Shown: positions 14,164 through 42,824 of the stretch, in pieces
How positions within the stretch are numbered: position 1 is the stretch's first letter
Layout: the number at the start of each line of letters is the position of its first letter
NCBI GenBank assembly: GCA_024710705.1
Contig: JANJUF010000066.1
Coordinates: 1 to 53,126 of the forward strand
From: Gemmatimonadaceae bacterium
GTDB lineage: Bacteria > Gemmatimonadota > Gemmatimonadetes > Gemmatimonadales > Gemmatimonadaceae
Reading direction: 5' to 3'
Length of the DNA: 53,126 bases
Notes under the pieces: generated by a model
The model's input: the letters and a program-made list of their open reading frames with translations, nothing else
Told to the model about the DNA's origin: nothing
Databases searched by the model: none
Position numbers and translations under genes: made by a program

Positions 14164-14169
14164 TACTTT
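14164..14169 (+). promoter_or_regulatory. -10-like hexamer, leaderless start of methylase
   Basis: TACTTT ends exactly 6 nt before the GTG at 14176, so transcription would start at or next to the start codon. A TGGTCG sequence lies 17 bases upstream, but I do not consider it a proven -35 box. Confidence 0.55.
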
Positions 14170-14175
14170 GGGCGG

Positions 14176-15234
14176 GTGATCAAGTACATCGGCTCGAAGC
14201 GGAAGCTGGTTTCCCGGATCGTGGCCCTGGCGCAGGCGATTCCCGGGGCCCGTACGGCCCTGGACCTGTTCACCGGCACCACGCGGGTGGCGCAGGGGCT
14301 GAAGCAGGCGGGATTCCACGTGACGGCCAACGACCTTGCCACCTACAGCGAGGTGCTGGCCACGGCCTACATCGCCACCGATGCGCGCCGCGTGGACCTC
14401 GATGCGCTCGACGCGCACCTGGTGGAACTGAACGCGCTCGACGGGGAGCGTGGCTACTTCACGCGCACCTTCTGCGAGGAGGCGCGCTACGTGCAGCCGA
14501 AGAACGGGATGCGGGTGGATGCGATCCGTGCGCGGATTGCGGCGATGGCGGTGGACGACACCATGCGGAGCATCCTGCTCACGGCATTGCTGGAAGCCAC
14601 CGATCGGGTGGATTCCACCACGGGTCTGCAGATGTCGTACCTGAAGGCCTGGTCCACGCGAAGCCATCGCGAGCTGCGGCTGCGGCGCCCTCTCTTGCTG
14701 GCCGGCGCGGGGCGGGCCATCCGCGCCGACGCCCGGGTGACGGTGCGCCAGCCTGATGGGTATGACATCGCGTATCTCGACCCGCCGTACAACCAGCATT
14801 CGTACTTCAACAACTATCACGTGTGGGAGACGCTGGTGCGCGGCGACACGCCGCCGGCCTACGGCGTGGCGCGGAAGCGCGAAGACTGTCGTACCACCAA
14901 GAGCGCGTTCAACCGACGCCTCGAGGCCGACGGGGCGCTCGCCGAAGTGCTCGGTGCGCTGCGCGCGCGGCACGTGATCCTCTCGTTCTCCGACGAAGGA
15001 TTCCTCTCGCTGGCGCGGTTGCGGGAGATGCTGGCGGCGCGGTTCGGCGAGGTGGGCGGCATCGCGATCCCGTCCAAGCGCTACGTGGGAGCGAAGATCG
15101 GCATTCACGACCTACGCGGCGTGCTCGTGGGGGAGGTGGGGCACCTGGAGAACACCGAGTGGCTGTTCGTGGCGGGACCCGACGCGATGGAGATCGCGCG
15201 GGCGGGCACGGCACCATTGGCGGAGGTGGCATGA
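14176..15234 (+). CDS. D12-class N6-adenine DNA methyltransferase (solitary)
   Basis: A 352-residue DNA adenine methylase. The N-terminal IKYIGSKRKL and the AdoMet-binding FTGTTR (residues 32-37) are typical of the Dam/D12 class. The catalytic DPPY is at residues 202-205, followed by NQHSYFNNYHVWET. The long region between the two motifs holds a variable recognition domain. GTG 14176 is the start because the family begins at VIKYIGSK; the frame stays open far upstream only as the antisense of fadN. No restriction endonuclease gene is adjacent, so the methylase may have a regulatory or self-protection role. Its stop overlaps the next gene (ATGA), a kinase-like protein. Confidence 0.9.
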   Translation: MIKYIGSKRKLVSRIVALAQAIPGARTALDLFTGTTRVAQGLKQAGFHVTANDLATYSEVLATAYIATDARRVDLDALDAHLVELNALDGERGYFTRTFCEEARYVQPKNGMRVDAIRARIAAMAVDDTMRSILLTALLEATDRVDSTTGLQMSYLKAWSTRSHRELRLRRPLLLAGAGRAIRADARVTVRQPDGYDIAYLDPPYNQHSYFNNYHVWETLVRGDTPPAYGVARKREDCRTTKSAFNRRLEADGALAEVLGALRARHVILSFSDEGFLSLARLREMLAARFGEVGGIAIPSKRYVGAKIGIHDLRGVLVGEVGHLENTEWLFVAGPDAMEIARAGTAPLAEVA

Positions 15235-15887
15235 CGGACGTGCGATCGGCGGTGGCAGCGCACGACTGGGCGCCGGTGCACGACGAGCTCCTGGCCGGTG
15301 TGGTCCATGCCTGCAACAATCGCGTGGCGGCGCTGGGCGCACTCTGCGAGCTGCAGGAGGCGGGGCTCTCGACGGAACAGGAAGGCCTGCTGGCGCTGCG
15401 TACCGAGGTGGGCAAGCTCCGCGCGATGATGGAGCTGCTGCGGGCCTTGATGCTCAAGACCGGCGCCAAGAAGGAGCCGTCGCGATTCGGGGATGCGGTG
15501 GCGGGTGCGGCGTCCTTGCTGACGCACCACATGGTCGCGCGGCAGTGGACGATTTCCGTGGCGGATGAGCCGACGGAGACGGAGCCGGTGCTGATGTGGC
15601 CGAGCGATCCGCTGCGGTTCGCGGTGCTGCTGCTGTTGGCCGCGGGCGGGCAGGCGCCGTCCGGGGAGCTGCGGGTGACGGTAATGCCGACCGGCACAGA
15701 CGTGGAGATCTCCGTGCTGGCCAAAGGCTCGGCCGCCGAGGTCGAAGCGCGAGCGGAATACTTGGCGCTGCGCCGGGCCGCGGAACAGGAGCGCGGTGGC
15801 GTGCGCTGCCGGCCTTACGTGGACAAGACCAGCGTGAAGGTGACGCTCACGCTGCCCGGACTCACCAAGGCGCGCACACAGCGCTGA
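15231..15887 (+). CDS. Histidine-kinase-like protein (DHp plus degenerate ATPase)
   Basis: A 218-residue soluble protein. The first third is a helical hairpin containing VVHACNNRVAALGAL, with His26 and Asn29/Asn30 spaced as in the H-box of histidine kinases (HExxN). The remainder looks like a reduced GHKL fold (DPLRFAVLLLLAAGG, then a beta strand pair and VKVTLTLPG), but I see no clear N-box, G1 (DxGxG) or G2 motif. It may be a phosphotransfer protein or a pseudokinase. It overlaps the methylase gene by four bases, so the two are probably made together. An NtrC-type regulator without its own kinase lies 1.6 kb downstream. A functional link is only a suggestion. Confidence 0.55.
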   Translation: MTDVRSAVAAHDWAPVHDELLAGVVHACNNRVAALGALCELQEAGLSTEQEGLLALRTEVGKLRAMMELLRALMLKTGAKKEPSRFGDAVAGAASLLTHHMVARQWTISVADEPTETEPVLMWPSDPLRFAVLLLLAAGGQAPSGELRVTVMPTGTDVEISVLAKGSAAEVEARAEYLALRRAAEQERGGVRCRPYVDKTSVKVTLTLPGLTKARTQR

Positions 15888-15898
15888 GGTGCCCGCGC

Positions 15899-16333
15899 CT
15901 AGAAGGCGCGGCGGGCGTCGAAACGGAGGTCCTGCGCCCACGTGGGCGTCGCACCGTCGGCGATGCGGACGCGGATCGTGATCTCGGTGCCGTTGGTCGG
16001 CGTGCCGGTGGCGGTGGTGGCGCCCTCGCGGATCCAATCGCCCTGCGTGTCGAGTACGGTGACGCCAGCCGGGACGGTGTTGGCCACCAGATCCCAGCGC
16101 ACGTTGCCGGCGACCTGATACTTCAACGTGTACTCGGTGAAGGTGTCGCCTTGCCAGGTGGCCGTGGGCTGCGCCGTCTGGCGGAGGTTGAGGATCTCGG
16201 GGATCGTGGCGCCGCCGGTCACGCGCACGCTGCCACTCCCAGCACCCACGACCATCGCGACGTTCTGCGCCGTGAGGTCGGCGGCAGTCGTCGCGAGGAG
16301 CAGTGCGATGAGGAGGAAGGTGGCTTTGCGCAT
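15899..16333 (-). CDS. Secreted hypothetical protein
   Basis: A 144-residue protein with a clear signal peptide (MRKATFLLIALLLATTAADLTAQ). The mature part is beta-rich and of immunoglobulin or surface-protein character (SVRVTGGATIPEILNLRQTAQPT, then TEITIRVRIADGATPTW). There are no cysteines in the mature region. Function is unknown; a periplasmic or cell-surface location is likely. The gene lies downstream of the sigma factor gene on the same strand, but a strong hairpin at 16446-16481 separates them and a candidate promoter at 16409-16438 suggests independent transcription. Confidence 0.7.
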   Translation of the reverse strand: MRKATFLLIALLLATTAADLTAQNVAMVVGAGSGSVRVTGGATIPEILNLRQTAQPTATWQGDTFTEYTLKYQVAGNVRWDLVANTVPAGVTVLDTQGDWIREGATTATGTPTNGTEITIRVRIADGATPTWAQDLRFDARRAF

Positions 16334-16408
16334 GGGGAGTTAGTGGTCTCTACACTCCCTCTATTTCACTATTCGTGCCACGCAGCCAGTTCAGCTAACC
16401 TATTGCTG

Positions 16409-16438
16409 TGTATGCATTTAGATGGTGTGCTAGGTCAA
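16409..16438 (-). promoter_or_regulatory. Candidate sigma-70-type promoter of the secreted protein gene
   Basis: On the minus strand TTGACC (16438-16433) and CATACA (16414-16409) are separated by 18 bases, close to -35/-10 spacing. They lie about 75 bases upstream of the ATG at 16333. The spacer 16334-16506 is also noticeably more AT-rich than its surroundings. Low certainty. Confidence 0.35.
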
Positions 16439-16445
16439 TACGAAG

Positions 16446-16481
16446 CCCGGCAAGAACCGCCGTATGGCAATTCTTGCCGGG
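16446..16481. terminator. Strong hairpin terminator
   Basis: CCCGGCAAGAA (16446-16456) and TTCTTGCCGGG (16471-16481) form a perfect 11-bp stem with a 14-nt loop. On the plus strand it is followed by a T-rich stretch (TTCTTTCTGTGATTCTTT), on the minus strand by little T. As it lies 25 bases after the sigma-factor stop it may end that transcript, but the U-tract points to a plus-strand RNA. Confidence 0.7.
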
Positions 16482-16506
16482 TTCTTTCTGTGATTCTTTC
16501 GGAGGC

Positions 16507-17319
16507 CTAGGCGGCCAACGGGCGACGGCTGCGCAGGTGATCGCGCAACTGTCGCAGGGCGCGGGTGCGGATTCGTGAGACGCCCGATTCGGAGAGGCCG
16601 AGTGCCGGTGCGATCTCGCGCAGGGATCGCTCCTCGAAGAAGGAGAGCTGCATGATGCGCCGCGCAGTGGGGTCGAGGGAGTTGAGCGCGTCCCGGAGTC
16701 GCTCGCGTTCTACTTCGCGATCAATCTCGAGGTCGAGGTCGAGGTCCGGCGCGGGGAGGCGATCGCCCATCGGGTGGTCGGCTGATGGCGTCTCCTCGAT
16801 CGGCGCATCAATGCTGCAGTGCACGCCCGAATGGAGTGCGGCTTCCCACTCCCAGAGTTCGCGGACGGTCATGCCGAGTGCCTCGGCGAGCTCGTGGGCG
16901 GCAGGCGCGTGCCCGAGCTGGTGGCTGAGCGCGTTGCGCATGCTGTCGATGAGGCGCGCCCGCTCGCGGGTGGTGCGCGTGAGCGGGTCGAGGCGGCGCA
17001 GTTCGTCGAGCATGGCGCCGCGGATGCGCGGTGTGGCGTGCGTGGAGAAGGCGAGGCCGCGATGCGCCTCAAACGTGGTGGCGGCCGCGAGCAGGCCGCA
17101 CATGCCGGCGCTCACCAGCTCATCGAGCTCGGCGTCGTCGGCCAAGGTCTTGTGCATCCGTCGGGCGAGGTAGTGCACCAGGCCAGAGTGTTGGCGGACG
17201 AGGGAGTCGCGGTTATCGGCAGCGGTGAGCACAGGGGGGTCATCTCGTGATAGTGGTTCGATGACCACATGTGCAGGAACCGCGCCTCGGCGGGCTAGCC
17301 GTAACTCATTATTCAGCAA
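16507..17319 (-). CDS. FliA/WhiG-family sigma factor (sigma-28 type)
   Basis: A roughly 270-residue alternative sigma factor. Region 2 is seen in HSGLVHYLARRM, ELDELVSAGMCGLLAAATTFEAHRGLAFSTHATPRIRGAMLDELR, and the sigma-28 hallmark RRLDPLTRTTR follows. Region 3 (LGHAPAAHELAEALGMTVREL) and region 4 (RIMQLSFFEERSLREIAPALGLSESGVSRI) are complete. Such factors control motility or development genes. No flagellar gene is present in this window. The annotated start is TTG 17319; the first 20-25 residues are poorly conserved in character, and an internal GTG (MVIEPLSRDD) is an alternative. No anti-sigma gene is adjacent. Transcription seems independent of the NtrC-type gene because a hairpin separates them. 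Confidence 0.88.
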   Translation of the reverse strand: MLNNELRLARRGAVPAHVVIEPLSRDDPPVLTAADNRDSLVRQHSGLVHYLARRMHKTLADDAELDELVSAGMCGLLAAATTFEAHRGLAFSTHATPRIRGAMLDELRRLDPLTRTTRERARLIDSMRNALSHQLGHAPAAHELAEALGMTVRELWEWEAALHSGVHCSIDAPIEETPSADHPMGDRLPAPDLDLDLEIDREVERERLRDALNSLDPTARRIMQLSFFEERSLREIAPALGLSESGVSRIRTRALRQLRDHLRSRRPLAA

Positions 17320-17418
17320 CGAGTTAGAAAAATCTCTGGCACAAAACCACTAGGCGACTAATGCCGAGCGGCAAATTGTGCCGAGTGGACCGGCGTTGGT
17401 GCGCGGGACTGGAAAGGA

Positions 17419-17437
17419 CTTTGCCTCTGTGGCAAAG
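17419..17437 (-). terminator. Stem-loop after the NtrC-type gene
   Basis: CTTTGCC (17419-17425) and GGCAAAG (17431-17437) form a 7-bp stem with a 5-nt loop. On the minus strand it is followed by TCCTTTCC. It lies 22 bases after the stop codon of the regulator at 17460 and is a plausible intrinsic terminator with a weak U-tract. Confidence 0.55.
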
Positions 17438-17459
17438 CAGCTCCCCGCCGAGTCGCGAA

Positions 17460-18821
17460 CTACTCGGGACTATTCAGCCGCGAGCGCAGCGTGCGGATCG
17501 AAATGCCGAGCAGCTCGGCGGCCTTGGTGCGGTTCCCTTCGGTACGCGCGAGGGCGGCCTCGATCAGCTTCGTCTCGGCTTCGCCGATGTTCAGCGACTT
17601 GAGGACCACCGCGCCTTCCTCGGCGACGACGGCCTTGGGTGCGGACGAGGGCGTGGACGGCCGATGGCCACCGAAGGCGTGGAGGCCGAGCGTCGGCTCG
17701 CGGGAGAGCACCACCGCGCGCTCCACGAGGTGTTGCAGCTCGCGCACGTTGCCCGGCCAGGTCTGGGCGCGCAGCCACTCGATTGCCTCCGGCGTGATGC
17801 CGGCGATCTCCTTCTTGTACTCCTGCGCCGCCCGCATCGCGAATCGCATCGCCAAGAGCGGGATGTCGTTGGCGCGGTCGCGCAGCGGCGGGATCTTCAC
17901 CGGGATCACGCTGAGCCGGAAGTAGAGGTCTTGCCGGAACTTTCCTTCGGCCGCATCGGCGGCGAGATCGCGGTTGGACGTGGCGATGATGCGCACGTCC
18001 ACCTTGATGGGCGTCTCGCCCCCGACGCGCTCGAACTCGCCTTCCTGCAGCACGCGCAGGAGCTTGGCCTGGAGGTCGAGGCGCATCTCACTGACTTCAT
18101 CGAGCAGCAGGGTGCCGCGGTGGGCGCGTTCGAAGGCGCCTTCCACGCGGCGAATGGCGCCGGTGAACGCGCCCTTCTCGTGACCGAAGAGCGCGCTCTC
18201 GATCAGGCCTTCGGGGATGGCCGCGCAATTGATCTTGATGAACGGGCCATCGCGGCGCTCGCTCTGCTCGTGGATGGCGCGGGCGAAGAGTTCCTTGCCG
18301 GTGCCGCTCTCGCCCAGGAGGAGGACGGTGGCGCGGGTGGGCGCGGCCATGGCGACTTCGGTGAGCGCGTGCTGGATGGCCGGACTCTCGCCGAGGATCT
18401 GCTGGTTCTGGCGTAGCGCCATCACCTCGCGGCGCAGCGCCTCGTTCTCCTGCTTGAGTCGCGAGACCTTGAGGGCCTGGTCCACCGCGATCTCGAGATG
18501 CTGGGCATCCACCGGCTTCGTGATGTAATCCACCGCGCCGGCCTTGATGGCGGCGACGGCGTGCTCGATGCTGGCATAGCCGGTGAGCATGATGAGGGGG
18601 ATGTCGTGACCCTCCTGCTTCATGAACTCGAGGAGGTCGAGTCCCGTGAGCCCCGGCATCTGGTGGTCGGAGATGACGAGGTCCACGCCGCCGCGGGCGA
18701 GGGCCTGCAAGGCTTCCTGCACGGATTTCGCGCCGACCGCGTGGTGGCCTGCCTGCTCGATATGATGCCCGAGCAGCATGCCGACCGCGGGTTCGTCATC
18801 AACGTACAGGATGGTGGCCAT
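17460..18821 (-). CDS. NtrC-family sigma-54-dependent response regulator
   Basis: A 453-residue transcription activator. The receiver domain has acidic residues DDE at 8-10 and phospho-acceptor Asp52 (ISDHQMPG). The AAA+ domain has Walker A GESGTGKE at 170-177, the sigma-54-contact motif GAFTGA at 217-222 and Walker B LLLDE near 241. The C-terminus is a Fis-type helix-turn-helix (NRTKAAELLGISIRTLRSRL). It should activate sigma-54 promoters when phosphorylated. The start is ATG 18821 (MATILYVDDE); an upstream in-frame start adds twelve residues. No sensor kinase gene is directly linked; the kinase-like protein at 15231 is the only candidate nearby. Divergent from the DNA glycosylase gene. Confidence 0.95.
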   Translation of the reverse strand: MATILYVDDEPAVGMLLGHHIEQAGHHAVGAKSVQEALQALARGGVDLVISDHQMPGLTGLDLLEFMKQEGHDIPLIMLTGYASIEHAVAAIKAGAVDYITKPVDAQHLEIAVDQALKVSRLKQENEALRREVMALRQNQQILGESPAIQHALTEVAMAAPTRATVLLLGESGTGKELFARAIHEQSERRDGPFIKINCAAIPEGLIESALFGHEKGAFTGAIRRVEGAFERAHRGTLLLDEVSEMRLDLQAKLLRVLQEGEFERVGGETPIKVDVRIIATSNRDLAADAAEGKFRQDLYFRLSVIPVKIPPLRDRANDIPLLAMRFAMRAAQEYKKEIAGITPEAIEWLRAQTWPGNVRELQHLVERAVVLSREPTLGLHAFGGHRPSTPSSAPKAVVAEEGAVVLKSLNIGEAETKLIEAALARTEGNRTKAAELLGISIRTLRSRLNSPE

Positions 18822-18835
18822 TGCCCGGACGAAGG

Positions 18836-18841
18836 TAACTT
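18836..18841 (+). promoter_or_regulatory. -10-like hexamer, leaderless start of glycosylase
   Basis: TAACTT ends exactly 6 nt before ATG 18848, as at several other gene starts in the window. It lies in the 26-base gap between divergent genes. Confidence 0.55.
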
Positions 18842-18847
18842 CGGTGG

Positions 18848-19468
18848 ATGCCACCACGCCACGCGCGCGCCATCGCGCATCTCACGCAGTCGGATCCGGT
18901 CCTCGGGAAATGGATCGCCCAGGCGGGTCCGTGTTCGCTCACCCGCGAGCGCCGCGGGACCCATTTTGCGGCCGTCGCGCGTTCAATTGTGTACCAGCAG
19001 CTCAGCGGCAAGGCGGCGGCCACGATCCACAGCCGTTTCGAGGCGCTCTACGGCGGACGCACGCCGGAACCGCGCGAGTTGGTGAAGACGGCCGACGCGA
19101 CGTTGCGCGCCTGCGGCCTCTCGGGGCGCAAGGCCGAGTACCTGAAGGGGCTGGCCGAGGACGTGTTGACGAAGCGTGTGCCGATGGATGTGCTGGACGA
19201 CCTCGACGATGCGGCGGTAATCGAGGCGCTGACGACGGTGCGTGGCGTCGGGGAGTGGACCGCGCAGATGTTCCTGATGTTCCGGCTGGGACGCCCTGAC
19301 GTCCTGCCGACGCTTGACCTCGGCGTGCAGACGGCGATCAAGCGGCTCTACAAACTGCGCGCGCACCCCACGCCCCAACGCGTCGCGACGATCGGCGCGA
19401 AGTGGGCTCCCTATCGAACGGTGGCTTCGTGGTATCTCTGGAGAGTGGTGGACGATCCCCCGCAGTGA
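18848..19468 (+). CDS. DNA-3-methyladenine glycosylase II (AlkA-like, HhH-GPD)
   Basis: A 206-residue base-excision repair glycosylase that removes alkylated purines. The helix-hairpin-helix is seen in LTTVRGVGEWTAQMFLMFRLGR and is followed by the catalytic aspartate candidate Asp157 in LPTLDLGVQ. The N-terminal HFAAVARSIVYQQLSGKAA block is typical of the short AlkA/MagIII-type proteins. It lacks the E. coli AlkA N-terminal domain, as many family members do. The start ATG 18848 is preceded at 6 nt by TAACTT and lacks a Shine-Dalgarno sequence. Its stop overlaps the GTG of the next gene (GTGA). Confidence 0.92.
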   Translation: MPPRHARAIAHLTQSDPVLGKWIAQAGPCSLTRERRGTHFAAVARSIVYQQLSGKAAATIHSRFEALYGGRTPEPRELVKTADATLRACGLSGRKAEYLKGLAEDVLTKRVPMDVLDDLDDAAVIEALTTVRGVGEWTAQMFLMFRLGRPDVLPTLDLGVQTAIKRLYKLRAHPTPQRVATIGAKWAPYRTVASWYLWRVVDDPPQ

Positions 19469-20844
19469 GCGCGTCCGGGCGCGGCACGGAAGTGCTGCTG
19501 CGCTCGGAGATGCCGGTGAGCGCAGAGGCGTTGTTCGCCTGGCACGAACGTCCCGGAGCGTTTGAGCGACTCTCGCCCGCGTTCATGCCGGCGACGGTGT
19601 TGGAACGCAGCGGCGGGATTCGCGACGGCGCGCGGGTGGTGCTGGGCGTGCCGCTGGGGCCGCTCACCACGAAGTGGGAGATCGTGCACGAGGGCTACCA
19701 GGCAGGGCGACAGTTCCGTGACGTGCAGGTGAAGGGGCCATTCGCGCGCTGGGAGCACACGCACCGCATGGAGCCGCTGGGGGCGGACGCGAGCGTGCTC
19801 GAGGATCACATCGTGTACGAACTGCCGGCAGCTCCCTTCGGCGAACTCGTGGCCGGGCACTTCACGCGCGGGAAGCTCGAACGCTTGATGCGGTGGCGGC
19901 ACGCGCTGACGCGGCTGGACCTGGAGCGCCACGCGACGTTCGCGTCGCGCGGGCCACTGACCATCGCCATCACTGGCGCCAGCGGATTTCTCGGCACGGC
20001 GCTGGTGGCCTTCCTGCGCACCGGCGGGCATACGGTGCGCACGATCGGTCGCGGGAAGGGAAACGACTTCCAGTGGGATCCCTCGCGCGGGCAGCTCGAC
20101 GCCGCGGCGTTCGCGGGTGCCGATGCGGTGATCCACTTGGCGGGCGCGTCGGTGGCCGAGCGTTGGACGGCTGAGCGAAAGCGGGCGATCCGGGAGAGTC
20201 GCGTGCAGAGCACGCGGCTCGTGGCCGAAACGCTGGCGAAGATGTCGTCGCGGCCGGCGGTGCTGTTGTGTGGATCGGCGGTGGGGATTTACGGCGATCG
20301 CGGCGATGCGGTGCTCGAGGAATCGAGCGCGCTGGGCGAAGACTTCCTGGCGGATGTGGGGAAGGAGTGGGAAGGCGCGACGGCCGCGGCGCGGGATGCC
20401 GGCGTGCGCGTGGTGCACCTGCGCACGGGGATCGTGCTGAATCCCGGCGGCGGGGCGTTGGGGAAGATGCTGCTGCCCTTCCAGGCGGGCGTGGGCGGGA
20501 AGCTGGGCAGCGGCAAGCAGTGGATGAGTTGGATCAGCCGCGAGGATTGGATCGGCGCGGCCCACTTCGCGCTGCACACGGCGTCGCTGCAGGGAGCGGT
20601 GAATCTCACGGCGCCAGAGCCGGTGACCGGTGCGACGTTCGCCTCGACGCTGGCGCGCGTGCTGCATCGTCCGGCGCTGTTCCCGGTACCGACCATCGCG
20701 TTGACGACGATGTTCGGCGAGATGGCGCGGGGGACGATCCTCGCGAGCCAGCGCGCGCTGCCGCGGGCGCTCGAGGACGCGGGGTTCCGCTTCGCGCATC
20801 CGACCTTGGCGAGCGCGCTGCGCTTCGAGCTCGGGTTGCTGTAG
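19465..20844 (+). CDS. SRPBCC domain fused to TIGR01777-type NAD-dependent epimerase
   Basis: A 459-residue two-domain protein. The N-terminal about 150 residues form a START/SRPBCC-like ligand-binding fold (EVLLRSEMPVSAEALFAWHERPGAFERLSP...). From about residue 165 an extended SDR begins with the NAD(P) motif TGASGFLG, then DAVIHLAGASVAERW, VGIYGDRGD and the C-terminal MFGEMARGTILASQRALP. The latter part is the TIGR01777/SDR39U1 family, linked to cell-division proteins (YfcH) in other bacteria but with no firm substrate. GTG 19465 overlaps the glycosylase stop. The fusion is common in Actinobacteria and related phyla. It has no membrane segment. Confidence 0.9.
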   Translation: MSASGRGTEVLLRSEMPVSAEALFAWHERPGAFERLSPAFMPATVLERSGGIRDGARVVLGVPLGPLTTKWEIVHEGYQAGRQFRDVQVKGPFARWEHTHRMEPLGADASVLEDHIVYELPAAPFGELVAGHFTRGKLERLMRWRHALTRLDLERHATFASRGPLTIAITGASGFLGTALVAFLRTGGHTVRTIGRGKGNDFQWDPSRGQLDAAAFAGADAVIHLAGASVAERWTAERKRAIRESRVQSTRLVAETLAKMSSRPAVLLCGSAVGIYGDRGDAVLEESSALGEDFLADVGKEWEGATAAARDAGVRVVHLRTGIVLNPGGGALGKMLLPFQAGVGGKLGSGKQWMSWISREDWIGAAHFALHTASLQGAVNLTAPEPVTGATFASTLARVLHRPALFPVPTIALTTMFGEMARGTILASQRALPRALEDAGFRFAHPTLASALRFELGLL

Positions 20845-20874
20845 TCCGCCGGTGATTCCGGCGCGTCCCGCGCG

Positions 20875-20880
20875 CATATT
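20875..20880 (+). promoter_or_regulatory. -10-like hexamer before antiporter gene
   Basis: CATATT ends 5 nt before ATG 20886. It differs from TAnnnT at the first position and has one base less spacing than the main group. Weaker example of the leaderless pattern. Confidence 0.35.
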
Positions 20881-20885
20881 GTGGG

Positions 20886-22367: not shown

Positions 22368-22377
22368 CGAAAGCGAT

Positions 22378-22383
22378 TAGATT
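22378..22383 (+). promoter_or_regulatory. -10-like hexamer, leaderless start
   Basis: TAGATT ends exactly 6 nt before ATG 22390. The same hexamer with the same spacing is found before 28585 and 33922. It lies in the 22-base gap after the antiporter stop codon. Confidence 0.6.
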
Positions 22384-22389
22384 CGTCGG

Positions 22390-22896: not shown

Positions 22897-23318
22897 TCGG
22901 GCTGCCAGTCGGTCACCGCGCGCTTGATGTCGCGCGGCTTGGCGAACTCTCCCCTGAGCGTGCGTTCCACCAGCGTCGGCAACTCGGCGTCGCTGGCGAA
23001 TCGCAGCGCGATCAACTGGCGCACCGTGAGCTCGGCGATGCGCGCGGCGAGCGCAGCCGGGAGGACTTCCTTGAGGCGGAGCCGCATCTCGAGGCGGATC
23101 ACGCGGTTCTGCACCGTGATGGCCATGATGCGCGAGGAGATGACGGCGGCGAAGATGGCGACGCCGTAGAGGGCCTCGAAGAAATGCGGGGTGCTGGGGT
23201 TAGTGATGAAGTGCCACACCATGTGCACCGCGGCGAGGCCGGTGATGGGTGAGGCGAGGAAGTGGTAGATGGGAAACCAGCGGGCGTGGTTCTCGAAGGA
23301 CTGTTTTGGCTTGGGCAT
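22881..23318 (-). CDS. DUF6526-like two-helix membrane protein
   Basis: A 145-residue membrane protein. It begins MPKPKQSFENHARWFPIYHFLASPITGLAAVHMVWHF, with a second hydrophobic segment (FFEALYGVAIFAAVISSRIMAI), then a cytoplasmic helical tail (VIRLEMRLRLKEVLPAALAARI...). The SFENHARW.P.YHF opening is characteristic of DUF6526. No function is known for the family. ATG 23318 is chosen over an upstream start that adds 52 arginine-rich, repeat-like residues. It converges with the previous gene. Confidence 0.75.
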   Translation of the reverse strand: MPKPKQSFENHARWFPIYHFLASPITGLAAVHMVWHFITNPSTPHFFEALYGVAIFAAVISSRIMAITVQNRVIRLEMRLRLKEVLPAALAARIAELTVRQLIALRFASDAELPTLVERTLRGEFAKPRDIKRAVTDWQPDYLRA

Positions 23319-26921: not shown

Positions 26922-26927
26922 TACATT
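26922..26927 (+). promoter_or_regulatory. -10-like hexamer before msrP
   Basis: TACATT ends 5 nt before ATG 26933. The GGAG directly after it touches the start codon with one base between, too close for a Shine-Dalgarno sequence, so a leaderless start is more likely. Confidence 0.5.
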
Positions 26928-28572: not shown

Positions 28573-28578
28573 TAGATT
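28573..28578 (+). promoter_or_regulatory. -10-like hexamer, leaderless start
   Basis: TAGATT ends exactly 6 nt before GTG 28585, identical in sequence and spacing to those at 22378 and 33910. It lies in the 26-base gap after the msrQ stop. Confidence 0.6.
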
Positions 28579-33896: not shown

Positions 33897-33909
33897 GGGG
33901 TCGCCCTGT

Positions 33910-33915
33910 TAGATT
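33910..33915 (+). promoter_or_regulatory. -10-like hexamer, leaderless start of sucA
   Basis: TAGATT ends exactly 6 nt before ATG 33922. There is no Shine-Dalgarno sequence between. It suggests that sucA and its coupled downstream genes have a promoter separate from the kinase. Confidence 0.6.
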
Positions 33916-33921
33916 TCGGTC

Positions 33922-36678: not shown

Positions 36679-39347
36679 CGCTACGCCGCGCCCTGGGCGG
36701 CGCAGTGTTGGTCGCGTCGGTGCTCGCGCCGCGCCCTGCCTTCGGGCAGGAGCGCGGCGCGGCGGCGTTGGACCAGCTGCTGCGCGGGGTCACCGTCTCT
36801 GGACGGGTCCTCATGGTGGCCGCCCATCCCGATGATGAGGACACCAACCTCCTCGCTCAACTGGTGCGTGGCCACCAGGTACATGCCGCGTACCTCTCGC
36901 TCACCCGCGGTGACGGCGGGCAGAACCTGATCGGCAACGAACTGGGCGAAGGCCTGGGCGCCATCCGCACCGAGGAGCTGTTGGCGGCGCGGCGCGTGGA
37001 CGGGGCGCAGCAGTTCTTCTCGCGGGCCTATGATTTCGGATTCTCCAAGAACGCCACCGAGACCTTCGAGCACTGGGACCGGGAGGCGTTGCTCGGCGAC
37101 GTGGTGCGGGTGATCCGGGCCTTCCGCCCGCAGGTGATGGTCGCGGTGTTCAGCGGCACGCGCGCCGATGGCCACGGGCACCACGAGGCGTCGGGGCTCC
37201 TCGCGCGCGAGGGATTCGAGGCGGCGCGGGATACGGTGCGCTTCCCGGTGTTCACGCACGGGCGGCCGTGGCAGCCGCAGAAGTTCTATCGGGGCGCCTG
37301 GTCACGGAATCGTCCGCACACGCTGAGCATGGACGTCGGCGAGTATGACCCGGTGCTCGGGCGGAGTGCGGCCGAGATCGCTGGCGAGAGCCGCTCGCAG
37401 CACCGCTCGCAGGGCTTCGGCGTGGTGCAACGGCGCGGCGCGGTGCAGACGCGGCTCACCCGCGAGGTCACGCTCGTGAACGATTCGGTTCCCGCCGAAC
37501 AGGAGCAGTCGCTATTCGATGGCGTGGACACGACCTTCGCGCGACTCACCCGGCTGGGTGGCGGTCGCGCCGCCGCCCTGGCGCCGATCGCCGCGTTGAT
37601 GGATTCGTTGGCGCAGGTGGTGGATCTGCGTCGCCCCGGGGCCATCGTGCCCGGACTTGCGCGCGTGGTCACGCTGGCCGAGCAGGCGCGTGATTCGGTG
37701 AAGGCGTGCGGCATCATTCCGTTCCGGCGGTATCCGGGCATCACCGGCGCCCCACCGACCTGCGACGGCGACGAACTGGATCTCGATGAATCGCTGACGC
37801 GGCTGCTGGCGCGGGCGCGGGCGGCGCTGCTGCAGGCCGGGCGCGTGCTGGTGGAGGCCACGGCGTCGCAGGAGCTGGTGGCCTTCGGCGATGCGCTGGT
37901 CGTGCGCGTCACCATCTACAATCGCGGCACGCAGCCGGTGCAGCTGCACGAGATGCAGCTGAGTGGCGCGCGCCCCTTGAAGTTCGAGGCGCCGCTGGAG
38001 ATCGCGGCCGGGACGGACAGCACGTTCCTCGTGCCGGTGGTGGGGCTGGTGGATGCCCGCCCGTGGTGGCTGGGACCGCGCGCGAGCAAGGCGATGTTCC
38101 TCGACACGCGCTCGCCGGTGGATGGCATCGCCAAGGTGTCGTACGGCGTGGCCGACGAGCTGATCCCCAGCGTGGCGCTGGCCGAGGATGTGCGGCGCGT
38201 GACGGCGTTGAAGGTGCGGTTGGGCCTCGCCGGTGCCACCACGACGGTGGACGCCGGCGAGATCATCTATCGCTTTGCCGATCCCGTGCTGGGCGAGCAG
38301 AACCGGCCGGTGGGTGGCGTGCCGCCGATCACCGTGGCGCTGGACCGCACCCTGGAGATGGTGCGCGCCAACGAACCCATTGATCGGATGATTCGCGTGA
38401 CGCTCAAGTCGCACACCCAGCAGCGGCGCGTGCTGCGGTTCCGTCCGCTGATCCCGGCTGGGGTGACGGGCACCGGTCTGCCCGACTCGTTGGTGCTCGA
38501 GCCGGGTGCGTCGCGCGAGCTCTACCTCACGCTCAAGGGACGCCTGGCCCCGGGCAGGCACGATTTCGGCATCGGGGTGGAGTCCGAGAACACGCTATTC
38601 GTCGAGGGATTCTCGACGATCGAGTATCCCCACATCCGCCCGATCCGCATGTATCGGCAGGCGGCGGCGTATCTCGTGGCGGTGCCGGTGACGGTGCCGC
38701 GGGCGTTGCGCGTGGCCTACGTGCTCGGGGTGTCGGATGCGGTCTCGCCGGTGCTCTCGCAACTGGGCGTGCCGACGGCGGTGATCACGGCGGCGCAGCT
38801 GCCCTTGCTGGACCTGAAGGAGTTCACCACCGTGGTGATCGGGCCGCGCGCGTACGAGACGAGTCCGGAACTGGCGGCGGCGAATCCGCGGCTCTTCGAG
38901 TGGGTGCGCAGCGGAGGCACGTTGGTGGTGCAGTACGGGCAGTTCGAGATGCAGGATGAGGGCATGACGCCGGCGATGATCGCCTTCTCGCGGCCCGCCG
39001 CACGCGTGACCCTCGAGGGCGCGCCGGTGCGCGTGCTTGATGCACAGTCGAAGTTGCTGCGCTTCCCCAACCGCATCACCGACACCGATTGGGCCGATTG
39101 GGTGCAGGAGCGCGCGCTCTACATGCCCTCGGCGATCGACCCGAGCTATCGCACGCCGATTGCCATGAACGATCCCGAGGAACCGGAGCAGCGCGGGGCA
39201 ATCCTCGACCTGCCCATGGGTCGTGGCCGCTACATCTACACCTCGCTTTCGCTGTTCCGGCAGTTGCCGAGCGGCGTGCCGGGTAGCGCGCGGCTCTTCG
39301 TGAACCTCCTCTCGGCAGGGCTTCCCGAGGAACGGACCACGCCATGA
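36675..39347 (+). CDS. Secreted PIG-L-family deacetylase with large C-terminal region
   Basis: An 890-residue exported protein with signal peptide (ALGGAVLVASVLAPRPAFG). The PIG-L domain (about 42-330) has the zinc motif AHPDDE at 50-55 and a GHGHHEA motif that supplies a further histidine ligand. PIG-L enzymes remove N-acetyl groups from GlcNAc-type sugars. The remaining about 550 residues contain an Ig-like region (DALVVRVTIYNRGTQPVQLHEMQLSG) and a glutamine-amidotransferase-like fold near the C-terminus (ITAAQLPLLDLKEFTTVVIGP...FEWVRSGGTLVVQYG). Long versions like this occur in Bacteroidota and Gemmatimonadota. Start ATG 36675 is coupled to sucA and the stop to the NDH-2 gene. Substrate unknown; cell-surface polysaccharide is possible. 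Confidence 0.9.
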   Translation: MTLRRALGGAVLVASVLAPRPAFGQERGAAALDQLLRGVTVSGRVLMVAAHPDDEDTNLLAQLVRGHQVHAAYLSLTRGDGGQNLIGNELGEGLGAIRTEELLAARRVDGAQQFFSRAYDFGFSKNATETFEHWDREALLGDVVRVIRAFRPQVMVAVFSGTRADGHGHHEASGLLAREGFEAARDTVRFPVFTHGRPWQPQKFYRGAWSRNRPHTLSMDVGEYDPVLGRSAAEIAGESRSQHRSQGFGVVQRRGAVQTRLTREVTLVNDSVPAEQEQSLFDGVDTTFARLTRLGGGRAAALAPIAALMDSLAQVVDLRRPGAIVPGLARVVTLAEQARDSVKACGIIPFRRYPGITGAPPTCDGDELDLDESLTRLLARARAALLQAGRVLVEATASQELVAFGDALVVRVTIYNRGTQPVQLHEMQLSGARPLKFEAPLEIAAGTDSTFLVPVVGLVDARPWWLGPRASKAMFLDTRSPVDGIAKVSYGVADELIPSVALAEDVRRVTALKVRLGLAGATTTVDAGEIIYRFADPVLGEQNRPVGGVPPITVALDRTLEMVRANEPIDRMIRVTLKSHTQQRRVLRFRPLIPAGVTGTGLPDSLVLEPGASRELYLTLKGRLAPGRHDFGIGVESENTLFVEGFSTIEYPHIRPIRMYRQAAAYLVAVPVTVPRALRVAYVLGVSDAVSPVLSQLGVPTAVITAAQLPLLDLKEFTTVVIGPRAYETSPELAAANPRLFEWVRSGGTLVVQYGQFEMQDEGMTPAMIAFSRPAARVTLEGAPVRVLDAQSKLLRFPNRITDTDWADWVQERALYMPSAIDPSYRTPIAMNDPEEPEQRGAILDLPMGRGRYIYTSLSLFRQLPSGVPGSARLFVNLLSAGLPEERTTP

Positions 39348-40696
39348 GCGGCGCCACGCCAAAGGCCCGCGTTGTCATCATCGGTGGCGGGTTCGGTGGA
39401 CTGAATGCGGCACGGGCGCTCGGGAAGGCGGATGTGGACGTGCTGCTCATTGACCGCACCAATCACCACCTCTTCCAGCCGTTGCTGTACCAGGTGGCGA
39501 CGACGGCGCTGGCGCCGAGCGACATCACCGCGCCCATCCGCTGGATCCTGCGCGACCAGAAGAACGTCACGACGCTGCTCGGCACGGTGGAGAAGATCGA
39601 GCGACGCAATCGGGCGATCCGCGTGGTGGGCGAGCCAGAGCCGCTGCACTACGACTACCTGATCGTCGCGTCGGGCACGAGGCACTCGTACTTCGGAAAC
39701 GACCACTGGGAGCGGTGGGCACCGGGATTGAAGAGCGTCGAGGACTCGCGCCGGATCCGCAAACGCTTCCTGCTGGCATTCGAGCGCGCCGAGTGGGAGG
39801 AGGACGAGGCAGCGCGGCGGGCACTGCTCACCTTCGTGATCGTGGGTGGCGGCCCGACCGGTGTGGAGCTCGCCGGCGTGTTGCCGGAGATGTGCCGCAT
39901 GGCCTTCCGTCCGGACTTCCGGCGCATCGATACCGCGATGGTGCGGGTGATCCTGCTTGAGGGTGGGCCGCGCATCCTGCCGGCGTTCCCCGACAAGCTC
40001 TCGGCGCGCGCCTGCCGTGACCTCGAGAAGCTCGGCGTCGAGGTCCGCGTGAACACGCTCGTCACGGACATTGACGAGCAGGGCGTGCACGTCGGTGAGG
40101 AGTTCATCCCCACGCAGTCGGTGTTCTGGGCGGCCGGCAATGCGGCGTCGCCACTGGTGCGCACGCTCGACGTGCCGCTGGACAAGGTCGGGCGCGCGCT
40201 GGTGGAGCCGGACCTCTCGATTCCGGGCGATCCGCGCGTGTTCGTGATCGGCGACGTCGCGGCAGTGAAGCAACCCGATGGGCGTTGGGTGCCTGGCGTG
40301 GCGCCGGCGGCGAACCAGATGGGCAAGCACGCGGCCAAGAACATCCGCCGGCACCTGGCGGGCGAACCGTCGCTCCCGTTCGAGTACTTCAACAAGGGCG
40401 ACCTCGCGACGATCGGCCGGCACAAGGCGGTGGCGAGCTTCTTCGACGGCAAGCTGAGCTTCACCGGCTACCTGGCCTGGTTCCTCTGGCTGTTCGTGCA
40501 CATCGCGTACCTGGTGGGCTTCCGCAACCGGATCAGCGTGCTGCTGCAGTGGGCGTACAACTACATCTTCTTCGAGCGCGGCGTGCGGTTGATCACCGAG
40601 ACCGAGGATGCGTCGATGTCACGGCATCCGGCCACGCAGGGGCGCACCGGGGAGTTCCACGCGCGGGGTGCTGCCGAGGGCGTGCCTTCGTGGTGA
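39344..40696 (+). CDS. ndh: Type II NADH:quinone oxidoreductase
   Basis: A 450-residue flavoprotein that oxidises NADH at the inner membrane without pumping protons. FAD-binding IIGGGFGGLNAARAL is at the N-terminus, followed by HHLFQPLLYQVATTALAPSDI, the second nucleotide motif IVGGGPTGVELAG and the FAD-contacting VFVIGDVA. The C-terminal region (AWFLWLFVHIAYLVGFRNRISVLLQW) is the membrane-binding segment. It overlaps the PIG-L stop (ATGA), so it is translated from the sucA transcript. It could use the NADH made by the citric acid cycle, which gives the operon a metabolic sense. Confidence 0.95.
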   Translation: MSGATPKARVVIIGGGFGGLNAARALGKADVDVLLIDRTNHHLFQPLLYQVATTALAPSDITAPIRWILRDQKNVTTLLGTVEKIERRNRAIRVVGEPEPLHYDYLIVASGTRHSYFGNDHWERWAPGLKSVEDSRRIRKRFLLAFERAEWEEDEAARRALLTFVIVGGGPTGVELAGVLPEMCRMAFRPDFRRIDTAMVRVILLEGGPRILPAFPDKLSARACRDLEKLGVEVRVNTLVTDIDEQGVHVGEEFIPTQSVFWAAGNAASPLVRTLDVPLDKVGRALVEPDLSIPGDPRVFVIGDVAAVKQPDGRWVPGVAPAANQMGKHAAKNIRRHLAGEPSLPFEYFNKGDLATIGRHKAVASFFDGKLSFTGYLAWFLWLFVHIAYLVGFRNRISVLLQWAYNYIFFERGVRLITETEDASMSRHPATQGRTGEFHARGAAEGVPSW

Positions 40697-40708
40697 TTGT
40701 CGTCGAAG

Positions 40709-41923
40709 CTACGCCGCCCGCACCGGCCGCTCGGGAATGTGCCGCTCGATGCCGAGTCCGAGCACGATCGTGAGCCCAGCGAGCGCCGCGCCCGTGTAGA
40801 AGGGCACGCCCTTCCCGAGATAATCGAAGGCGAAGCCGGCCCAGATGGGCCCGATCACGCGCGCGATCCCGCCGAAGGTTTGCTGCACGCCCATGTACAG
40901 CCCGCGCTCGTGGTTGGGGATCACCTGCGAGAGCATCCCCGTCACGCAAGGGAAGGTGAACGCGGTGCCGAGCGGGATGAGTGCCACCGCGAGCGCCAAC
41001 GAGAGCGTGTTGGTGGTGAAGGGCAGCGCCAGCATGCCGAGGGCGAGGAACGCGCCACCATAGCGCGAGAGCCGCGGTTCGTGGTAACGGTCCACTGCCG
41101 GGCCGAGGAGCACCGCCCGCGCGAACACCGAGAGCACGCCGATGTAGACGAAGACCCAGCCGATGGTCGTTTCGTCGATGCCGTGGCGATCGAGGAGGAA
41201 GAGCGCGAGGATCGCCGTCATGCCCTGGAAGGCCCCCATGCCGATGGCGTAGATGAAGATCAGGCGGCTGGCCGGCAGTGCCGGATGCGTCACCACGCGC
41301 GTGAGGGTCTCGCGCGAGCCCGACACCTTGGGGCGGTCGGCCGTCTTCGCGCCGGCGTGCACGTTCGATTCCGAGAGATAGCGCCAGGCAAACACGATGT
41401 TCACGAGCGTGATCATCGCGGCGATCAACCCCGGCCACTCCGTCCCGATGCGCGCGGCGAAGGACCCGATGGCCGGCCCCAACGCCACGCCGGCGTTCGT
41501 TGCCGCCGAGAGCCAGCCCAGGGCCTTCGCCCTATCCTGCGGTTCGGTGGCGTCGGCCACGTAGGCTTGGATGACGCCCACCGTGCCCCCGCCCGCCCCC
41601 TGCACGATGCGCGAGAGGAAGAGGATCTCCAGCGAGCCGGCGTAGGCGAACACGATATACGCGATGCCGCTGCTGATGAGCCCGATGAGCAGGGCGGGGC
41701 GGCGGCCGTAGCGATCGGACACGCGGCCCCAGAGGGGCGCGCTCAACAGCTGCGCCACCGCGAAGCTGGAAACCAGGATGGCGATCACCGTGCCCTCGCC
41801 ACCCATGCCGACGGAATCCATCGCGCGCCACAGCGGACCGTGGCCGACGAAGCGGGTCGCGTAGTACGGGAGCAAGGGGAGCACCATGAGGAGCCCCACC
41901 ATGTCCACGAACGCGGTGACCAT
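40709..41923 (-). CDS. MFS transporter (TetA-like drug:proton antiporter family)
   Basis: A 404-residue secondary transporter with about twelve membrane segments. Family motifs are visible: motif A in APLWGRVSDRYGRRPALL, motif C-like GWLSAATNAGVALGPAIG, and a repeated motif in the second half. It resembles the TetA/multidrug group, but the substrate is unknown. ATG 41923 truncates the first helix; the frame continues upstream through GKLVIL, and a CTG at 41944 lies 6 nt after GAGGGA, so translation may begin there. It is convergent with ndh, with a 12-base gap, and divergent from mlaE. Confidence 0.9.
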   Translation of the reverse strand: MVTAFVDMVGLLMVLPLLPYYATRFVGHGPLWRAMDSVGMGGEGTVIAILVSSFAVAQLLSAPLWGRVSDRYGRRPALLIGLISSGIAYIVFAYAGSLEILFLSRIVQGAGGGTVGVIQAYVADATEPQDRAKALGWLSAATNAGVALGPAIGSFAARIGTEWPGLIAAMITLVNIVFAWRYLSESNVHAGAKTADRPKVSGSRETLTRVVTHPALPASRLIFIYAIGMGAFQGMTAILALFLLDRHGIDETTIGWVFVYIGVLSVFARAVLLGPAVDRYHEPRLSRYGGAFLALGMLALPFTTNTLSLALAVALIPLGTAFTFPCVTGMLSQVIPNHERGLYMGVQQTFGGIARVIGPIWAGFAFDYLGKGVPFYTGAALAGLTIVLGLGIERHIPERPVRAA

Positions 41924-42035
41924 CAGGATGACGAGCTTGCCCAGGGTGCTTCCCTCACGTGGGGCGACTGCCCGAGGCGATGCCCCGCGGCGACCCGAAA
42001 GCTAATGGCCCTCTGGTCGGCCTGCCGCGCAAGGG

Positions 42036-42041
42036 TATACT
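42036..42041 (+). promoter_or_regulatory. -10-like hexamer, leaderless start of mlaE
   Basis: TATACT ends exactly 6 nt before GTG 42048. A TGGTCG sequence lies 16 bases upstream, as it does 17 bases upstream of the methylase -10. This is the best match to the bacterial -10 consensus in the window. Confidence 0.6.
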
Positions 42042-42047
42042 CCAGTC

Positions 42048-42824
42048 GTGATCGAGTCCCTCGGGAATTCCCTGCGACGTGGCCTCGGCACGGTCGGGGC
42101 GGCCAGCCGCCTGACCGTCGAGGCCTTCAAGGCCTTGCGGGACGTGTCCACCTGGGGTCCGAACTTCTCGGCGCAGGCCCGCCAGCTGGGTGTGGATTCG
42201 ATTCCCATCGGCGTCCTGATCGCCGGCTTCACGGGCATCGTGCTCGCCCTCCTGGCCAGCTATAGCTTCACCGGCGCGGTGCCGCGCTACCTCGTGGGAA
42301 CGCTCGTCCAGAAGACGATTATGATGGAGCTGGCCCCGGTGCTCACCGGGTTGGCGTTGGCCGGGCGCGTCGGGGCGAACATCGCCGCCGAGATCGGCAC
42401 GATGCGGGTGACGGAGCAGGTGGACGCCCTGGAGACCCTGGCCTTTGACCCGGTGGCCTACCTTGTCGTCCCCCGGGTGCTGGCCGGGACGCTGATGTTC
42501 CCGGTGGTGGTGGGGGCGGCGATGTTCTTCGGGATGATCGCCGGGTGGGGCGCGTCCCTGCTGTTGCTGGGGCTGTCCACGCCGGAGTTCCTGAAGGGGG
42601 CGCGGCTCTTCTTCGATTCCTTCGACGTGCGCTACGGCTTGGTGAAGGCGGCGAGTTTCGGTTTTGCGGTGACGATCCTGGCCTGCGCGGCGGGCCTCCG
42701 GACGCGTGGTGGGGCGCAGGGCGTGGGCGGTGCGGCCACCCGCGCGGTGGTGCAGTCGGCGGTGATGATCCTCGTCCTCGATGCCTTCTGGGCGATGGTG
42801 TGGCTTCTCGGGAGAGCGCGATGA
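42048..42824 (+). CDS. mlaE: Phospholipid/ MCE ABC transporter permease MlaE
   Basis: A 258-residue inner-membrane permease of the Mla/MCE lipid transport system that moves phospholipids between the two membranes. Five to six hydrophobic segments are present with the conserved MMELAPVLTGLALAGRVGANIAAEIGTMRVTEQVDAL block, which is the MlaE signature. GTG 42048 follows TATACT by 6 nt and lacks a Shine-Dalgarno sequence. The next gene, coupled by ATGA, is the substrate-binding MlaD. The ATPase gene mlaF is not in the cluster. Confidence 0.95.
   Translation: MIESLGNSLRRGLGTVGAASRLTVEAFKALRDVSTWGPNFSAQARQLGVDSIPIGVLIAGFTGIVLALLASYSFTGAVPRYLVGTLVQKTIMMELAPVLTGLALAGRVGANIAAEIGTMRVTEQVDALETLAFDPVAYLVVPRVLAGTLMFPVVVGAAMFFGMIAGWGASLLLLGLSTPEFLKGARLFFDSFDVRYGLVKAASFGFAVTILACAAGLRTRGGAQGVGGAATRAVVQSAVMILVLDAFWAMVWLLGRAR

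What the first reader, a model, noticed from the sequence alone, without database searches (positions are those of the whole stretch)
14164..42050. Fixed TAnnnT-N6-start geometry: leaderless genes as a rule
At seven first-gene starts a TAnnnT hexamer ends exactly 6 nt before ATG or GTG: 719 (TATATT, XRE gene 731), 14164 (TACTTT, 14176), 18836 (TAACTT, 18848), 22378, 28573 and 33910 (all TAGATT), and 42036 (TATACT, 42048). Two more have 5-nt spacing (26922 TACATT; 20875 CATATT). With A and T each near 17 percent, a given position matches TAnnnT by chance about once in 200. A -10 box at this distance puts the transcription start on the start codon. Seven of the nine have no usable Shine-Dalgarno sequence. 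The pattern decides start codons (for example GTG 28585 and GTG 14176) and suggests this lineage uses leaderless mRNA for operon heads and coupling for later genes.
Basis: partly seen in the sequence, partly recalled or inferred. Interest (0 to 1): 0.85.

Follow-up and report, generated by a model that had tools for sequence, protein, structure and literature searches.

The report
Promoter boxes touching start codons
In this bacterium of the phylum Gemmatimonadota, a sizeable minority of genes appear to start transcription right at the start codon, so their messages lack the usual leader; this way of starting genes is already known from other bacteria, but we found no description of it for this phylum.

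Summary
At starts called from coding signal alone, TANNNT ends exactly 6 nt before the start in 39 of 585 genes, against about 1 per distance at gaps 12-29. In the raw 3.0 Mb genome TAGATT-N6-ATG occurs 22 times, its reversed control once. The box looks like a promoter -10 element: TTG of a -35 lies 17-18 bp upstream in 9 of 87 cases, and 7 of 21 tRNA genes carry TANNNT 9-11 nt upstream. Before sucA the box is kept in 27 of 28 loci examined while its distance to the start slides from 5 to 10 nt. Leaderless or near-leaderless transcription is the best reading. 'As a rule' and 'fixed' are too strong: a mixture model gives 37-44% of divergently transcribed heads and 14-24% of all genes in the two sets of sampled contigs, with Shine-Dalgarno dominant inside operons. 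The genome groups with Gemmatimonadota (one gene). The mechanism is known from Actinobacteria and Deinococcus (PMC3160421, PMC12340547). No 5' end was mapped.

The parts
719..724 (+). -10 box TATATT, gap 6, of the XRE/HTH gene starting at ATG 731
   Evidence: HTH_3; 11.0 bits. Not in my gene set; not testable in G004
14164..14169 (+). -10 box TACTTT, gap 6, of GTG 14176 (D12 class N6-adenine DNA methyltransferase)
   Evidence: posterior 0.95; TAGCTT in G004. Pfam profile position 1 aligns at residue 4 of this start
18836..18841 (+). -10 box TAACTT, gap 6, of ATG 18848 (HhH-GPD DNA repair protein); TAA is also an in-frame stop at -12
   Evidence: 0.99; identical in G004, but the region is conserved throughout
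20875..20880 (+). -10-like box CATATT, gap 5, of ATG 20886 (Na+/H+ exchanger with TrkA-C domain)
   Evidence: 0.95; CATATT in G004
22378..22383 (+). -10 box TAGATT, gap 6, of ATG 22390 (no Pfam match); TAG is also an in-frame stop
   Evidence: 1.00; TAGATT in G004
26922..26927 (+). -10 box TACATT, gap 5, of ATG 26933 (molybdopterin oxidoreductase)
   Evidence: 0.98; TACATT, gap 5, in G004
28573..28578 (+). -10 box TAGATT, gap 6, of GTG 28585 (RlmL-like rRNA methyltransferase); TAG is also an in-frame stop
   Evidence: 1.00; box in 12 of 30 family loci examined, this genome included
33910..33915 (+). -10 box TAGATT, gap 6, of ATG 33922 (sucA, 2-oxoglutarate dehydrogenase E1); TAG is also an in-frame stop
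   Evidence: 1.00; box in 27 of 28 family loci examined, this genome included, gap 5-10
42036..42041 (+). -10 box TATACT, gap 6, of GTG 42048 (MlaE permease)
   Evidence: 0.99; TAACTT in G004; 5 of 24 loci examined, this genome and its four closest matches
   Evidence: (0.99)
   Evidence: 0.99
   Evidence: 0.87

Best explanation
The TAnnnT hexamer (here TANNTT, most often TAGATT) is the -10 element of a housekeeping sigma-70-type promoter placed directly against the open reading frame. RNA polymerase would start about 6-8 bp downstream of the box (general knowledge, recalled), on the A or G of the start codon or up to about 4 nt before it, so the mRNA has no or almost no leader and no Shine-Dalgarno sequence, and the ribosome must recognise the AUG or GUG at the 5' end. 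About two fifths of divergently transcribed genes and roughly one gene in four to seven use this; most genes inside operons use Shine-Dalgarno sites. Shown by sequence: the distance peak, the motif, the -35 trace, the tRNA-gene boxes, the conservation and the context bias. Inferred: the position of the transcription start, and translation of the leaderless message.
For: Peak at gap 6 with starts called from coding signal only: 39 of 585, against about 1 per distance at gaps 12-29 and 2.6 expected from composition. Whole-genome raw peak without gene calling: 85 TAGATT-N(0-20)-RTG matches against 13 of the reversed control; of the 49 ending in ATG, gaps 0-5 hold 6, gap 6 holds 21, gaps 7-10 hold 18, gaps 11-14 none and gaps 15-20 four; of the 36 ending in GTG, gap 6 holds 9 and no other gap more than 4. 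A sharp lower edge with a short upper tail is what a start codon that cannot lie upstream of the transcript's 5' end predicts. EM mixture, 570 genes: leaderless share 0.42 divergent, 0.28 mid-spaced, 0.17 far-spaced, 0.07 internal; decoy internal ATG/GTG 0.01-0.03; a start from the reversed motif converged on the same motif. -35: TTG at spacer 17/18 in 9 of 87 leaderless genes against 3 of 227 others (Fisher p 7e-4). tRNA genes, which have no translation start: TANNNT 9-11 nt upstream in 7 of 21 (3 of 15 in this genome, 4 of 6 in relatives; 0.3 expected in all; the range was picked after seeing the profile). Conservation: sucA box in 27 of 28 loci examined; 8 of 8 alignable window sites keep a box in G004, one of them CATATT. 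ATG 71 of 87 in leaderless genes against 106 of 164 in Shine-Dalgarno genes (p 0.006).
Against: No RNA evidence. The gap is not fixed, so some messages may carry 1-4 nt leaders. More than half of divergent heads are not assigned to this class. The contigs were chosen because they hold the motif; contigs not so chosen give a lower overall share, 0.14 against 0.24, and the model was fitted on both together. The -35 is visible in only about a tenth of cases. MlaE and RlmL boxes are not found in most distant relatives (5 of 24, 12 of 30). In the smaller samples the intended negative controls were not clean: fixed-motif shares for divergent heads were 0.19 in Paraburkholderia and 0.25 in Anaeromyxobacter, not far below the same-family genomes G129 (0.27), G019 (0.29) and G004 (0.35). 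There the gap-6 counts separate better: 6 of 149, 3 of 68 and 6 of 68 against 1 of 69 and 1 of 83, though Anaeromyxobacter has 5 more at gaps 7-8.
Confidence: 0.9

Rival explanations
1. Same promoters, but the messages mostly carry a very short leader (1-4 nt) rather than none; strictly leaderless mRNA is only part of the class.
For: Gap weights of 7, 8 and 9 together about 0.23; sucA orthologues slide from 5 to 10 nt; tRNA boxes sit 9-11 nt from the mature 5' end.
Against: Gap 6 alone holds about 60% of the weight, and the base there is the A or G of the start codon; purines are favoured start bases (recalled).
Confidence: 0.3
2. The hexamer is a translation signal (an AT-rich, S1-type or other non-Shine-Dalgarno ribosome site), not a promoter.
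For: It lies where a ribosome site would lie, and genes that have it lack a usable Shine-Dalgarno sequence.
Against: tRNA genes carry it too (7 of 21); a -35 trace sits at the proper spacing; it is rare before operon-internal genes, which need a ribosome site most.
Confidence: 0.04
3. Artefact: starts were chosen because of the motif, or TAG/TAA boxes mimic stop codons that limit the open frame.
For: At gap 6 the TAG/TAA is in frame, and 30 of 39 gap-6 boxes are of that kind against 12 of 19 at gaps 5, 7 and 8, so some ascertainment may be present.
Against: Raw pattern counts need no gene calls (22 against 1 control); boxes starting TAC/TAT, which are not stops, also peak at gap 6 (9, against 0-3 at gaps 0-5 and 7-13); gaps 3 and 9, equally in frame, hold 3 each.
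Confidence: 0.02
4. The TAG/TAA of the box is the stop codon of an overlapping upstream gene and the spacing reflects translational coupling.
For: Many boxes begin TAG or TAA.
Against: In the window the preceding genes end elsewhere (for example 22367, 28558 and 33896), the box is commonest at divergent genes that have no upstream neighbour on the strand, and TAC/TAT boxes occur.
Confidence: 0.01

Closest known systems
TA-led (leaderless) genes of bacteria, Zheng et al. 2011 (PMC3160421; passages read)
   Same: TANNNT about 12 bp (first T) before the start codon, taken as a -10 box; in G+C-rich genomes the middle positions carry little information; average share of genes 19.2% in Actinobacteria
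   Different: Fifth position is mostly T here (TANNTT; 91% of 87 sites). The passages I saw do not name Gemmatimonadota; their table lists Chloroflexi at 4.7% and 'Other Bacteria' at 7.8%
-10-motif adjacent to ORFs in Deinococcus-Thermus (PMC12340547; passages read)
   Same: TANNNT about 6-7 bp before the ORF, reported there with experiments to work as a -10 region for leaderless genes; a GGAG ribosome motif at other genes
   Different: Commonest form there TACACT, here TAGATT; nearly one third of genes there, about 14-24% here; no experiment here
Leaderless transcripts of Mycobacterium (PMC3898074, PMC4633059; search listings and abstract openings only)
   Same: A bacterium with an extensive leaderless transcriptome, by the titles
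   Different: Phylum; RNA-seq and ribosome profiling data exist there

Membership tests
Bacterial leaderless (TA-led) genes | TANNNT -10-like hexamer ending about 6-7 bp before the start codon, above chance | tested here: met
   39 of 585 at gap 6; 22 raw matches against 1 control
Bacterial leaderless (TA-led) genes | No Shine-Dalgarno sequence at these genes | tested here: met
   Seven of nine window sites have none, two have GGAG 1 nt from the start; the classes separate in the mixture model
Bacterial leaderless (TA-led) genes | Enriched at first genes of transcription units | tested here: met
   0.42 divergent against 0.07 closely spaced internal genes; 0.37 against 0.04 on contigs not chosen by the motif
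Bacterial leaderless (TA-led) genes | The hexamer is a promoter element | tested here: met
   By sequence only: -35 TTG at spacer 17/18 in 9 of 87; box before 7 of 21 tRNA genes
Bacterial leaderless (TA-led) genes | Transcript 5' end at, or within a few nt of, the start codon | not testable with these tools
   No RNA data
Bacterial leaderless (TA-led) genes | Leaderless message is translated | not testable with these tools
   No ribosome profiling or proteomics; only the ATG preference and conserved open frames
Gemmatimonadota (taxon) | Marker phylogeny places the genome with named Gemmatimonadetes | tested here: met
   GyrA tree of 23 rows: the one named Gemmatimonadetes row used (L055) falls inside the 11-row clade of the window's class (SH-aLRT 100). 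One gene only; the two phylum-level rows G001 and G003 dropped out at extraction; 16S and RpoB were not found in the bin

The most novel reading that the evidence does not exclude
Gemmatimonadaceae are a further bacterial lineage, beside Deinococcus-Thermus and Actinobacteria, in which leaderless initiation is a main route at transcription-unit heads, with its own -10 form TAGATT. At gap 6 the TAG of that box doubles as an in-frame stop codon 12 nt before the start, which would block in-frame translation of read-through transcripts into the leaderless gene. In-frame TAG/TAA boxes are somewhat commoner at gap 6 (30 of 39) than at gaps 5, 7 and 8 (12 of 19), but start-calling bias could explain that.
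Probability: 0.2. Interest if true: 0.55.

Novelty: new member of a known kind. Interest (0 to 1): 0.4.

Why it matters
It extends leaderless initiation to a phylum for which I found no report of it. By TAGATT-N6-ATG counts the signal is strong in the window's genus, family and order and weaker beyond. It gives a practical rule for annotation: TANNTT ending 5-10 nt before an in-frame ATG/GTG helps to fix the start codon, as for GTG 28585 and GTG 14176. It also gives a -10 consensus for expression work in Gemmatimonadota, and one more lineage for asking whether leaderless initiation is ancestral.

Tried and rejected
Identifying the organism by 16S and RpoB failed because neither was found in the bin. 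Two GyrA trees were wrong because I read minus-strand matches in the wrong frame; they are discarded and only one search is used (23 of 25 rows; G001 and G003 dropped at extraction; loci L146-L150 not used). Kinship of named genomes is not told by the genome search, so the phylum rests on the GyrA tree.

In one search (50 of the 80 named loci were given) AT-richer genomes often show similar real and control counts (36:32 in L046, 50:53 in L052), though some lean to real (34:11 in L072, 45:25 in L058). High-GC genomes mostly give low counts: 1:2 in Rubrobacteraceae L041, 1:0 in Anaeromyxobacter L091, 1:0 in Gemmatimonadetes L055; but 9:1 in a Chloroflexia bin, L043, and 7:1 in Gemmatimonadetes L050. 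The signal is therefore not confined to this phylum, nor strong in every member of it.

Considered and rejected: the box as stop codon of the upstream gene, and the box as ribosome site (see rivals). In class-level relatives G017 and G158 (100 kb each) I saw no gap-6 peak (0 of 66 and 0 of 68), and refits of the motif there drifted to other motifs. The strong form of the claim therefore holds for the family (and, by pattern counts, the order), not for the class. Refit shares in the 66-149-gene samples (up to 0.67) are overfitted and not used.

Rows dropped: of 30 sucA loci 2 were left out (matches at contig ends); of 30 MlaE loci 6 were left out (one at a contig end, five with only 45-47% identity). 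Of 612 called genes 585 entered the distance profile and 570 the mixture model; the rest run off a stretch, lie too near an end, are short or have no upstream neighbour. The caller misses some short genes, such as 731.
Full report
What was checked. The nine hexamers and distances in the finding are exact. The background figure is also right: from upstream composition a position matches TANNNT once in 222. Seven of the nine starts have no Shine-Dalgarno-like tetramer within 22 nt; the two others have GGAG only 1 nt from the start.

Is it more than chance? The finding asked for a genome-wide scan at each distance. I called 612 genes from coding signal alone and measured TANNNT at every gap for 585 of them. 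Gap 6 holds 39; gaps 5, 7 and 8 hold 5, 7 and 8; gaps 12-29 average 1.0. The contigs were picked because they hold TAGATT-N6-ATG, those were not; both are reported apart below. Without any gene calling, the whole 3.0 Mb genome has 22 TAGATT-N6-ATG and 1 reversed control. It has 85 TAGATT-N(0-20)-RTG matches against 13 of the control; of the 49 ending in ATG, 6 fall at gaps 0-5, 21 at gap 6 (one of the 22 is listed there at a shorter gap), 18 at gaps 7-10, none at gaps 11-14 and 4 at gaps 15-20; of the 36 ending in GTG, 9 fall at gap 6 and at most 4 at any other gap. At gap 6 a TAG or TAA box is an in-frame stop, which could bias start calls: 30 of 39 gap-6 boxes are of that kind. But boxes beginning TAC/TAT also peak at gap 6 (9, against 0-3 at the other gaps up to 13).

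How common is it? An EM mixture of leaderless, Shine-Dalgarno and neither, summed over candidate starts and with box gaps 3-11 allowed, was fitted to 570 genes. The leaderless motif came out as T59 A90 G54 A47 T77 T96 with 60% of its weight at gap 6, and a start from the reversed motif converged on the same answer. Leaderless shares: 0.42 of 148 divergent genes, 0.28 of 85 genes 21-80 nt after a same-strand neighbour, 0.17 of 104 farther ones, 0.07 of 233 closely spaced internal genes. Shine-Dalgarno share in the last group is 0.71. Decoy internal start codons score 0.01-0.03 for leaderless. Overall 0.21 of genes are leaderless. On contigs not chosen by the motif (201 genes) the figures are 0.37 of divergent genes, 0.04 of internal genes and 0.14 overall; on the chosen ones (326 genes) 0.44, 0.09 and 0.24; in the window (43 genes) 0.42, 0.10 and 0.32. 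'As a rule' is therefore too strong; 'a main route at heads' is fair.

Is the box a promoter? Among 87 confident leaderless genes the box is TANNTT, TAGATT in 23. A TTG, as the first half of a -35, stands 17 or 18 bp upstream in 9 of 87, against 3 of 227 other genes at the same offset. tRNA genes have no start codon, yet 7 of 21 carry TANNNT 9-11 nt before the tRNA, 0.3 expected: 3 of 15 in this genome and 4 of 6 in relatives of its genus and family; the 9-11 nt range was chosen after seeing the profile. Leaderless genes favour ATG (71 of 87 against 106 of 164; p 0.006). The lower edge of the gap distribution at 5-6 nt and its short upper tail are what one expects if the start codon cannot lie upstream of the transcript's first base.

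Conservation. A 60 kb region of the same-genus genome G004 is collinear with the window at 71-83% DNA identity in the pieces listed. A box is found at 8 of 8 alignable sites, one of them CATATT; site 731 could not be aligned, and at 18848 the whole region is conserved, so that case is weak. For sucA (33922) 57 of 59 family genomes have a match; of 28 loci examined, this genome included, 27 have TANNNT 5-10 nt before an in-frame start (gaps 5:2, 6:10, 7:3, 8:7, 9:3, 10:2). For the RlmL-like gene (28585) it is 12 of 30, and for MlaE (42048) 5 of 24, these being this genome and its four closest matches. Chance would give roughly one per set (my estimate from candidate starts, gaps and composition). 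So the promoter position looks old at sucA and younger, or less kept, elsewhere.

Who is it? GyrA places the genome's class in one clade with a named Gemmatimonadetes bin (L055; SH-aLRT 100, 23 rows). Across 298 genomes of the phylum, TAGATT-N6-ATG against reversed control is 22:1 in the window's genome, 164:1 in 12 of its genus, 856:42 in 91 of its family, 551:32 in 69 of its order, 517:118 in 119 of its class and 45:17 in 6 of its phylum, each group without the nearer ones. The signal is strong to the level of order and fades beyond. In 100 kb samples of two class-level relatives no gap-6 peak was visible (0 of 66 and 0 of 68). The intended negative controls were not clean: with the fixed motif divergent heads score 0.19 in Paraburkholderia and 0.25 in Anaeromyxobacter, against 0.27, 0.29 and 0.35 in G129, G019 and G004. 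So I lean on the larger own-genome sample and on raw pattern counts.

Start codons. GTG 28585 has an in-frame stop 12 nt upstream, and G004 also has GTG after a TAGATT. For GTG 14176, similarity to G004 is high from the GTG on and lower before it, and the Pfam D12 profile begins at residue 4, although coding signal alone had picked GTG 14137.

Known or new? Passages of PMC3160421 describe TANNNT about 12 bp before bacterial start codons as the mark of leaderless genes, on average 19.2% in Actinobacteria and 39.4% in Deinococcus-Thermus, and list lower or patchier shares in many other groups (Aquificae, with 26.5% in 2 of 5 genomes, lies between). Passages of PMC12340547 report with experiments that the same motif 6-7 bp before ORFs is the -10 region in Deinococcus. 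In the held library no paper has both 'Gemmatimonas' and 'leaderless', and three have 'Gemmatimonadota' and 'leaderless'. Of these I read passages of one, which lists the Gemmatimonadetes anti-Shine-Dalgarno type; the other two I saw only as listings, on composting and on a soil coassembly. A wider search (20 of 214 papers listed) showed no other paper that names Gemmatimonadetes; PMC5397173 does not name the group; a search on Gemmatimonas aurantiaca promoters and start sites gave one sigma-54 survey, seen as a listing only. That is not proof of absence: most subscription papers and supplements are not held. I file it as a new member of a known kind.

Noticed in passing
window 18819-18848: Divergent starts only 27 nt apart: by eye the minus-strand gene begins at ATG 18821 (reading MATILYVDDEP, like a response-regulator receiver start; no family search was run), and its box TACCTT (gap 10) overlaps the plus-strand box TAACTT, so one near-palindromic -10 may fire both ways. 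My gene caller had placed the minus start at 18722.
   Followed up: partly
G000 contig C33, 1-114 and 4269-5055: A second RlmL fragment (74% identity) and a second sucA fragment (87%), with TAGATT 7 nt before its ATG, lie on another contig of the same bin: possibly a co-binned relative.
   Followed up: no
L007, L009, L038, L181, L184, L218 (upstream of tRNA genes): Seven tRNA genes carry TAGCTT, TACGTT, TAGGTT, TAGTTT, TACTTT or TATCTT 9-11 nt upstream, in L038 with TTGACT 17 bp before it: useful as reference promoters of the lineage.
   Followed up: partly
L151-L179 (sucA loci), for example L157, L160 and L161: The sucA box slides 5-10 nt from ATG between genera while mostly staying TAGATT, TAAATT or TACATT, a natural series for testing how short a leader is tolerated.
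   Followed up: partly
L043 genome (Chloroflexia bacterium Co_bin.259): TAGATT-N6-ATG is 9 real to 1 control in this Chloroflexia bin, suggesting leaderless starts there too.
   Followed up: no
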